DNA of 64,000 nucleotides from Actinomycetota bacterium. GTDB lineage: Bacteria > Actinomycetota > Thermoleophilia > Solirubrobacterales > Solirubrobacteraceae. The position numbers and the translations under genes were made by a program. Below the pieces are notes generated by a model. That model was given only the letters and a program-made list of their open reading frames with translations. It had not been told where the DNA came from and searched no databases. The stretch lies in the NCBI GenBank assembly GCA_018268595.1, contig JAFDWH010000004.1:1-64000 (forward strand). Reading direction: 5' to 3'. Of this stretch, positions 45,566 through 46,979 are shown piece by piece; position 1 is the stretch's first letter, and every line of letters starts with the position of its first letter.

Positions 45566-46114
45566 TCAGGCGCCGCTCGCGAGCGCGCGGTAGACGCCCT
45601 CGCCGGCGGCCGCGTAGACGGCGTGGTGCAGTGCGCTGATCGACAGCTCCAGCGGACCCCAGCGCCACGGCGGCGGGGCTGCGCCGGCGGCCGGCACGAC
45701 GGCGAGGTCGGGCAGCCAGGCGATCGCGAAGAAGGCGGCGGGCGCAGCCGCTCCGTGCACGCCGGCGACGTCGAGCAGCCCGCGCGCGGCGCCGAGCGAG
45801 GTGCCGGTGCCGAGGTGCGCGACCGTCGCGAAGCGGGCGCCCGCTCTCTTCCGCGGCTTGACGCCGAGCAGTCTGCCGGCGACCTCGGCCGGCGCGCTGC
45901 TCGGCGCGCGTCTGCGCAGCTTCATCTCGGCAGTCGAGGCGACCGTCATCGCGGCGGTCGCGGCGACGCCCGCGACGAGGCCGCGCCCGAGCGCGACCGC
46001 GAGCGCGTCGAGCGCCTCGACGGCGGCCGGCCGGCGTGGCGAGCGCCCGCGCACGACCCGGCGCGCGGCGGCGCGGTGCGCGCGGCGTGCTGGGCTCACG
46101 CGCCGCAGCCTCAT
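45566..46114 (-). CDS. Membrane protein of unknown function
   Basis: A 182-residue protein I do not recognise by name. After a very basic N-terminus (about 30 residues) come hydrophobic segments ('ALAVALGRGLVAGVAATAAMTVAS', 'AAAPAAFFAIAWLPDLAVVPAAG', 'ELSISALHHAVYAAAGEG'). The pattern 'GLVAGVAATAAMTVASTAEMKLRRR...PSSAPAEVAGRLLG' is frequent in small actinobacterial membrane proteins with an internal repeat. The ATG overlaps the stop of the truncated SDR by 4 nt. Confidence 0.65.
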   Translation of the reverse strand: MRLRRVSPARRAHRAAARRVVRGRSPRRPAAVEALDALAVALGRGLVAGVAATAAMTVASTAEMKLRRRAPSSAPAEVAGRLLGVKPRKRAGARFATVAHLGTGTSLGAARGLLDVAGVHGAAAPAAFFAIAWLPDLAVVPAAGAAPPPWRWGPLELSISALHHAVYAAAGEGVYRALASGA

Positions 46115-46545
46115 CGCGGCCCGACCCCGCCGCGCGGCCGCGTGCCGCGCAGTTGCAGCGCCGCGAGCAGGCTCGGACGGCCGTGCAGATGGCCGCCCAG
46201 CTCGCCCTCGCCGGACGGCTCCCACAGCCCGTGCGGCGTCGCGTCCGCATGCGCGCGGTCGCGCGCGAGGCGGCCGGCGAGCGCGAGCGCGCGCTCCGTC
46301 AGCGGTCGCGCGTAGCGCTCGGCGAGCCCCAGCAGGCGCGTGTCGACCGCGCCCGGCCGCACCTCGGCGACGCGCACGTGCGAGCCGCCGGCGCGCAGGT
46401 CGGCGCGCAGGCTGTTGAGGAAGCCGTGCAGCCCGTGCTTGGCCGCGACGTAGGGGGAGAGCAGCGGCAGCTCGACCGCGTCGACCGCGCCGATCCCGCT
46501 GCTCGCGCCGGTCACGAGCGCCCGCTGTCCGTCGAGCCGTCCCAC
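46111..46545 (-). pseudogene. Short-chain dehydrogenase with internal deletion
   Basis: The 144-codon frame starts as a classical SDR ('LDGQRALVTGASSGIG', cofactor loop) and then jumps directly to 'AVDAVELPLLSPYVAAKHGLHGFLNSLRADL', which holds the YxxxK catalytic motif, and 'VRVAEVRPGAVDT'. About 110-130 residues normally between these parts (the NNAG region and the catalytic Ser) are absent, yet the frame stays open. The product cannot form a normal Rossmann fold. GTG lies 9 nt after GGGTAT, so the promoter looks intact. The deletion may be in the genome or an assembly collapse. Confidence 0.75.
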
Positions 46546-46560: not shown

Positions 46561-46599
46561 GATCTTTGGGGTGGTACGCGTGAGGGGGCGACGGTATCT

Positions 46600-46629
46600 T
46601 CATCTCACGAGGATCAAGGCAATGGCCAT
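46600..46629 (-). CDS. Tiny ORF, copy 1 (9 codons)
   Basis: ATG (46629) to TGA encodes MAIALILVR. GGAGG (rc of 46637-46641) stands 7 nt before the ATG, ideal spacing. The DNA from here to 46653 is a copy of the sequence at 46758-46807, including TGATGCATATGGAGG. Differences inside the shared AIALILV codons are synonymous (GCC/GCT, ATC/ATT). One nucleotide fewer before this ATG puts the upstream ATGs out of frame, unlike copy 2. It may be a decayed copy or a real leader peptide. Confidence 0.35.
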   Translation of the reverse strand: MAIALILVR

Positions 46630-46807
46630 GACGTTGCCTCCATATGCATCACAGAGCCCCGGGGTGACGACTCCGGGGCTCGCTGCTTGAGGCGACCCCG
46701 GCGCCGCACGTTACGCCGCCGGGGCCTTGCCTTGTTCACCGTCTCAACACGTGGTTGATCACGAGAATCAAGGCAATAGCCAAGACAAGCTCCTCCATAT
46801 GCATCAC
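46605..46807. repeat. Direct repeat pair containing the tiny ORFs
   Basis: Units 46605-46653 and 46758-46807 share TCACGAGnATCAAGGCAAT, nGCCA and CCTCCATATGCATCAC, with a variable 9-10 nt stretch between. Each is flanked on the upstream (minus-strand) side by a hairpin: AGCCCCGG/CCGGGGCT (about 46654-46681) for copy 1 and CGGGGC/GCCCCG (about 46817-46834) for copy 2. Another stem-loop (ACCCCGGCG/CGCCGGGG, 46695-46724) lies between. Confidence 0.75.
46736..46804 (-). CDS. Tiny membrane peptide ORF, copy 2 (20-22 codons)
   Basis: ATG at 46804 or, better, 46798 to TGA encodes a 20-22 residue peptide, 'MEELVLAIALILVINHVLRR' in the shorter form: one hydrophobic helix with acidic residues before and basic residues after it. 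AAAGGGGG lies 8 nt before the ATG at 46798. The core AIALILV repeats in copy 1 with synonymous changes. A GC-rich stem-loop directly precedes each copy. No known small-protein family recognised; a branched-chain-rich leader peptide for attenuation is the main alternative. Confidence 0.45.
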   Translation of the reverse strand: MHMEELVLAIALILVINHVLRR

Positions 46808-46979
46808 CCCCTTTCGCGGGGCCGTCGCCCCGGCCGGAGTTGGAGCTCCGGCGGATCGGGAGGTGCGCCGATGGAGGCTGTCGTTGACCGCACCTGACGC
46901 TAGGCGCAGCCTGTCGAGCGGTCTACAGCAGGAAGTGGTGGATGGCGTGAGCGGTGCGGGCAGCGCGCGCGAGAGCGCG

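What the first reader, a model, noticed from the sequence alone, without database searches (positions are those of the whole stretch)
46600..46834. Tandem unannotated tiny ORFs behind conserved hairpin leaders
Two copies of a 50-nt unit each contain TGATGCATATGGAGG and a frame with AIALILV; the codon differences within AIALILV are synonymous, which suggests selection on the peptide. Each is preceded by a GC-rich stem-loop. Copy 2 encodes a complete 20-22 residue peptide with one hydrophobic helix and basic end; copy 1 is 9 codons with an ideal GGAGG. This could be a new family of tiny membrane peptides, or Ile/Leu/Val/Ala-rich leader peptides for attenuation, with hairpins between.
Basis: partly seen in the sequence, partly recalled or inferred. 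Interest (0 to 1): 0.65.

Follow-up and report, generated by a model that had tools for sequence, protein, structure and literature searches.

The report
Antisense-controlled membrane peptide module in Conexibacter
A tiny gene for a 20-residue membrane peptide sits next to a broken copy of its own start, and the broken copy looks like the source of an antisense RNA that silences it, as in the addiction modules of other bacteria; this would be a first such family in the phylum Actinomycetota.

Summary
The repeat is real, but it is not two tandem tiny genes. On the minus strand, unit A (window 46866-46736) is a folded leader, an SD hidden in a three-way junction, and a 20-aa peptide, MEELVLAIALILVINHVLRR. 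Two strong hairpins follow (46726-46654), then unit B (46652-46605), a frame-broken partial copy of A's start region. I found seven such loci in four of seven genomes of one genus, which holds Conexibacter woesei, and none elsewhere. All seven encode 19-20-aa hydrophobic peptides starting with AUG, AUU, AUA or AUC exactly 8 nt after GGAGG. Stems covary. Unit B is non-coding, yet tracks its own unit A: predicted antisense(B):mRNA(A) duplexes reach -36 to -80 kcal/mol and are mostly locus-specific. On the opposite strand a -10-like TAYNNT box lies 4-8 nt outside unit B in six of six loci (0 of 20,000 shuffles). This is the anatomy of the par/Fst type I toxin-antitoxin locus: convergent RNAs crossing direct repeats and shared terminator hairpins, with a sequestered SD. 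The peptides are not Fst family members. Toxicity, the antisense RNA and AUN initiation are inferred, not shown.

The parts
46859..46865 (-). anti-SD strand CACCTCC of leader helix P1 (pairs with the SD)
   Evidence: CM R3/A7: P1 kept in 98% of cells over 7 loci; RNAalifold finds it unaided
46833..46852 (-). leader hairpin P2, loop CTCCAA
   Evidence: 5 of 7 pairs show double compensatory changes over 7 loci
46817..46832 (-). leader hairpin P3, loop GACG
   Evidence: 3 of 6 pairs with double changes
46805..46814 (-). extended Shine-Dalgarno AAAGGGGGTG (GAGAAAGGAGGTG in five of the six other loci), sequestered in P1
46736..46798 (-). ORF of the 20-aa hydrophobic peptide MEELVLAIALILVINHVLRR (putative toxin)
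   Evidence: seven homologous ORFs; shuffled sequence gives such an ORF 5 times in 100,000
46759..46807 (-). direct repeat, copy in unit A (start region of the ORF)
46694..46726 (-). hairpin H1, tip CGUAACGUGCG
   Evidence: 5 compensatory pairs between the two loci of this genome
46654..46681 (-). hairpin H2, tip UCGUCA; proposed shared terminator (its counterparts in L129 and L261 are intrinsic-terminator-like on the antisense strand)
46605..46652 (-). unit B: frame-broken partial copy of unit A; its opposite strand is the proposed antitoxin 5' end
46595..46600 (+). antisense -10-like box TATCTT, 4 nt outside unit B
   Evidence: TAYNNT at 4-8 nt in 6/6 loci, 0 of 20,000 shuffles
46605..46690 (+). 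predicted antisense RNA: 5' part complementary to unit A, then H2
   Evidence: fold, duplex -80.4 kcal/mol with own mRNA against -30 with the paralogue; expression not shown

Best explanation
The locus is a type I toxin-antitoxin-like module with the anatomy of the enterococcal par (Fst) locus. The minus strand makes a highly folded mRNA for a 20-residue membrane peptide. Its SD is locked in a three-way junction, and in paralogues the start codon is a near-cognate AUU/AUA/AUC, both of which would keep translation low. A convergent promoter just outside unit B makes a short antisense RNA. Its 5' end (the complement of B) matches the SD/start region of unit A, and its 3' end is hairpin H2, a terminator shared by both RNAs. 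Pairing at H2 and at the repeat would block translation of the peptide. When the antisense RNA runs low, the peptide would be made and act on the membrane. Shown: anatomy, structural covariation, repeat pairing potential and its locus specificity, position of the antisense -10-like box, family of peptides. Inferred: transcription of both RNAs, pairing in vivo, toxicity, AUN initiation.
For: Seven loci share the leader, with 97% of cells paired and 19 double-change cells against 6.3 expected (0/500 shuffles). H1/H2 show 9 compensatory pairs between the two loci of this genome. All seven peptides are 19-20 aa and hydrophobic. Unit B is present in 6 of 7 loci and frame-broken in most, yet it pairs with its own unit A at -80, -56, -52, -36, -66 and -42 kcal/mol, against about -25 to -47 with the others. 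Differences are biased to those keeping G.U pairs: transitions 14 to 2, p=0.002. Antisense TAYNNT lies 4-8 nt outside B in 6/6 loci. H2 is a canonical terminator on the antisense strand in two loci. The par locus has convergent promoters, direct repeats, a bidirectional terminator, a sequestered SD and a non-AUG (GUG) start (PMC7472228).
Against: No expression data. Antisense -35 boxes are poor except at one locus (TTGAAC, spacer 17), and no consistent sense promoter was found. At c16 the -10 box may be a copy of the miaB promoter box. Locus g3 keeps leader, ORF and an antisense TACGCT but has lost complementarity. g4a pairs only weakly better with itself (-36 against -34). H2 of the window lacks a U-tract on either strand. 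B edges were set by eye, and B of cwoe and g4c is below or near the shuffle maximum.
Confidence: 0.7

Rival explanations
1. Antisense-regulated small membrane protein that is not a toxin, for example a regulatory peptide of a membrane complex, with the same RNA anatomy.
For: All the RNA evidence fits equally; 20-residue single-helix peptides also occur as regulators (own knowledge).
Against: No conserved neighbour or partner gene: rny/miaB, tRNA-Gln and others; patchy presence and absence and several paralogues per genome fit a TA module better.
Confidence: 0.17
2. Two tandem coding units for tiny membrane peptides.
For: A/B differences fall at third codon positions in 10 of 17; copy 1 has GGAGG and ATG for MAIALILVR.
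Against: Unit B is frameshifted (win, g4c), has an in-frame stop (g4b), or lacks a start (cwoe, g4a), and no SD-plus-start arrangement is conserved in it.
Confidence: 0.05
3. Leader-peptide attenuator for a downstream gene.
For: Short Ile/Leu/Val/Ala-rich ORF followed by hairpins.
Against: Downstream genes differ between loci; at rny the ORF is convergent with the neighbour; the residue choice varies as hydrophobic rather than as one amino acid.
Confidence: 0.03
4. Decaying mobile or repeat element (MITE-like) whose repeats are by-products of insertion.
For: Discrete presence/absence at the rny-miaB site with a flanking near-duplicate at c16.
Against: No significant target-site duplication at the other five loci tested; stems covary and ORFs stay open.
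Confidence: 0.05

Closest known systems
par locus of pAD1 (Fst / RNA I / RNA II), Fst/Ldr type I toxin-antitoxin family (PMC7472228)
   Same: Tiny membrane peptide with charged tail; SD sequestered by its own leader; pair of direct repeats flanking shared terminator hairpin(s); convergent short antisense RNA starting at the outer repeat; non-AUG start (GUG there); locus-specific repeats in paralogues.
   Different: Peptide 19-20 aa against 33, no PXXXG motif and no profile match; phylum Actinomycetota rather than Firmicutes; leader is a covarying three-way junction; usually two hairpins, not one; start codons AUU/AUA/AUC as well as AUG; no YUNR U-turn seen in the H2 loops of win, c16, cwoe and g4a.
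Ibs/Sib and other Gram-negative type I systems (from own knowledge)
   Same: Very short, almost wholly hydrophobic peptide of about 19 aa under antisense RNA control.
   Different: Sib is antisense to the entire ibs ORF and has no flanking direct-repeat architecture; no sequence link tested.
MsoT1/MsoA1 of Microcystis (PMC12390103)
   Same: Type I TA-like locus proposed outside the classical phyla.
   Different: Cyanobacterial, different peptide; the antisense RNA is not known to start from a repeat of the toxin start region.

Membership tests
Type I toxin-antitoxin (general) | small (<60 aa) hydrophobic peptide | tested here: met
   seven 19-20-aa peptides, 13-residue hydropathy 2.2-3.5
Type I toxin-antitoxin (general) | antisense RNA complementary to the toxin mRNA | tested here: inconclusive
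   complementarity and antisense -10 box predicted in 6 of 7 loci; RNA not observed
Type I toxin-antitoxin (general) | peptide toxic, antitoxin RNA relieves it | not testable with these tools
   needs induction assay
par/Fst locus | direct repeats, one at the toxin start region and one at the outer side of the terminator | tested here: met
   (6 of 7 loci)
par/Fst locus | convergent promoters | tested here: inconclusive
   antisense -10-like box conserved in position; sense promoter not identified
par/Fst locus | bidirectional terminator between the repeats | tested here: inconclusive
   H1/H2 lie there; U-tract terminator on antisense strand in L129 and L261 only
par/Fst locus | intramolecular structure sequestering the SD | tested here: met
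   P1 of the three-way junction
Fst/Ldr toxin family | Fst sequence motif (PXXXG) / profile match | tested here: not met
   no Pfam or NCBIfam match above cut-off; no P in any peptide
Fst/Ldr toxin family | YUNR U-turn in terminator loop | tested here: not met
   loops UCGUCA, CCACAA, UCACGAC read by eye; not universal in the family either
Attenuator leader peptide | regulated gene directly downstream | tested here: not met
   no shared downstream gene
Any Rfam family | match at gathering score | tested here: not met
   none but tRNA; best sub-threshold hits are chance-level

The most novel reading that the evidence does not exclude
A first type I toxin-antitoxin family of Actinomycetota, unrelated by sequence to Fst but of the same architecture (convergent evolution), in which near-cognate AUU/AUA/AUC start codons act as a built-in translational brake in addition to SD sequestration and antisense control.
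Probability: 0.5. Interest if true: 0.8.

Novelty: new variant of a known kind. Interest (0 to 1): 0.7.

Why it matters
Type I toxin-antitoxin systems were reported only from Proteobacteria, Firmicutes and Tenericutes until a 2025 cyanobacterial case (PMC12390103), and that narrowness is blamed on search bias. A family in Conexibacter, found through RNA structure instead of toxin similarity, shows how to find more. A family that uses all four AUN start codons at one position would also be a natural test bed for initiation-codon discrimination.

Tried and rejected
A genome-contig scan with the 14-mer GATGCATATGGAGG gave hits in unrelated phyla, consistent with chance for so short a pattern. Model R1 on H1/H2 found only the two loci of this genome; its other hits were chance, for example inside a sufC-like gene. 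The viral contigs pattern scan gave SD-rich phage promoter regions, none with this anatomy. Plasmids: no match. R2/R3 over class and phylum samples gave only noise outside the genus. The G010 hit to the SD+ATN pattern encodes an unrelated short ORF and lacks the leader. Mobile-element reading: no significant target duplications at five of six loci. Initiation at the in-frame GTG inside the SD was considered and rejected because the SD would overlap the start codon (zero spacing). Consistent sense promoter: not found.

Full report
What is in the sequence. Read on the minus strand, the region holds: a leader from 46866; an SD-bearing three-way junction; the ORF 46798-46736 (MEELVLAIALILVINHVLRR); hairpin H1 (46726-46694); hairpin H2 (46681-46654); and a partial second copy of the start region, unit B (46652-46605). 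TGATGCATATGGAGG is exact in both copies, and the shuffles never reach the observed count.

A paralogue with compensatory changes. The same genome (G000) carries a second locus, c16 (contig C16, L129), found by DNA similarity (E 3.8e-8). It has the same order of parts. In H1 and H2 the tips are identical while the stems changed on both sides in 9 pairs; sliding the partners destroys this. This is structured RNA (or DNA palindromes), not simple repetition.

More loci. The pattern CACCTCC-N-AAAGGRGGTGAT found a third locus in G006. G006 has 6,359,369 bases in one contig, the published length of Conexibacter woesei (PMC3035278). A covariance model of the leader then found three loci in G004 and one in G003, all of the same genus. 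Nothing else rose above noise in 399 genomes of the class or 396 of the phylum. The samples were limited and strict filters were used, so distant members may be missed.

Leader. Over seven loci the three-way junction is 97% paired, with 8 pairs showing changes on both sides and 19 such cells (0/500 shuffles for cells; slid controls below 50% paired). RNAalifold recovers it on its own from the first three. P1 pairs CACCTCC with GGAGGTG, so the SD is sequestered. The alignment was fitted to the model, which leans towards that structure, but P2 and P3 covariation is far beyond both controls.

Peptides. The seven ORFs: MEELVLAIALILVINHVLRR, xEVTISLIVLLLVIHRVTR, MELLLAIVLLFLVDRLTRQR, xEIIALTMALLWLIDRMNRN, xEQLLLGMLLLLLILVVVTR, xDKLALILALLLVILWVTR, xELVTLTMVLLAVILWITRR. 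The codon written x is ATT, ATA, ATT, ATT and ATC. It lies at the same 8-nt distance from GGAGG as ATG in the other two. The in-frame GTG inside the SD cannot be the start with that SD. AUN initiation is therefore the simplest reading, but it is inferred; known AUU starts such as infC are from own knowledge. Shuffled sequence gives such an ORF 5 times in 100,000 (thresholds set after seeing the peptides).

Unit B is not a gene but tracks unit A. It is frameshifted in win and g4c, has an in-frame TAA in g4b, and has no start in cwoe and g4a. Local similarity of A and B exceeds all 500 shuffles in five of six loci; cwoe falls short (28 against 32) and g4c passes narrowly (39 against 38). Predicted duplexes of antisense(B) with its own mRNA are -80.4, -56.1, -52.0, -36.0, -65.7 and -41.9 kcal/mol; between paralogues of one genome they are about -25 to -34. 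A/B differences are asymmetric: T-to-C 12, A-to-G 1; transitions that keep a standard or G.U pair 14, the mirror transitions 2 (p=0.002).

Antisense promoter. On the opposite strand TAYNNT stands 4, 6, 6, 8, 6 and 5 nt outside unit B in six of six loci: TATCTT, TACCCT, TACGCT, TATCGT, TACACT, TACCAT. None of 20,000 flank shuffles has all six within 3-8 nt. A start about 7 nt after the box falls on the edge of the repeat. The RNA would have a 5' part complementary to unit A followed by H2. H2 is an intrinsic-terminator-like hairpin on the antisense strand at c16 and g4a. Weaknesses: -35 boxes are poor except TTGAAC with spacer 17 at g4a, and at c16 the box resembles the miaB promoter box. The box was found by eye before the test.

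Genomic behaviour. At the rny-miaB junction the module is present in G000 and G003 and absent in G001, G004, G005 and G006 (rny and miaB named from their sequences, own knowledge). The C. woesei and g4a loci share a tRNA-Gln neighbour. Each orthologous pair has diverged strongly in the repeat. In g3 unit B has lost complementarity (-28.6, within shuffles), so that copy may be relaxed.

Comparison. The par locus of pAD1 has a toxin mRNA and a short RNA II from convergent promoters crossing direct repeats DRa/DRb, a bidirectional terminator, a 5' stem-loop that hides the SD, and a GUG start; paralogues do not cross-protect, presumably because the repeats differ (PMC7472228). The present loci match most of this plan in silico. 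The peptides are not Fst members: no profile match, no PXXXG. So it works like par; it is not an Fst/Ldr member. Type I systems were known only from Proteobacteria, Firmicutes and Tenericutes before a 2025 cyanobacterial report (PMC12390103). My literature searches found no actinobacterial case, but only open-licence papers were searched.

Verdict. [quoted passage not shown] Toxicity and the RNAs themselves remain to be shown.

Noticed in passing
L299-L304 (rny-miaB junction): A GGTACCCT/CTACCCT box precedes the miaB start in the genus at a fairly constant distance, probably its -10; at c16 a near-copy (TACCCT followed by GGGGCGAT) stands on both sides of the module.
   Followed up: partly
L293 (G010:C22:108273): Perfect SD GAGAAAGGAGGTG 6 nt before ATC and a short ORF IESSSSYGTLEVTGR; unrelated to the family here, identity unknown.
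   Followed up: partly
window 46111-46545, minus strand: Short-chain dehydrogenase-like ORF that jumps from TGASSGIG to a late part of the fold, as if internally deleted; a possible pseudogene just downstream of the module.
   Followed up: no
L207 (viral contig) 9927: Two opposed SD sequences about 50 nt apart with a 23-aa hydrophobic ORF MPVHGFLWLGFWFLSYLFLCLIG after one of them, in a low-GC viral contig.
   Followed up: no
L264 (G003 locus g3): Leader, peptide ORF and an antisense TACGCT box are kept but H2 and the pairing repeat are lost; possibly an orphan or decaying module.
   Followed up: partly
window 46780-46720 and counterparts in L129, L182: The last half of the ORF with the stop codon folds into a long hairpin in the three mRNAs folded; not tested for covariation.
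   Followed up: no
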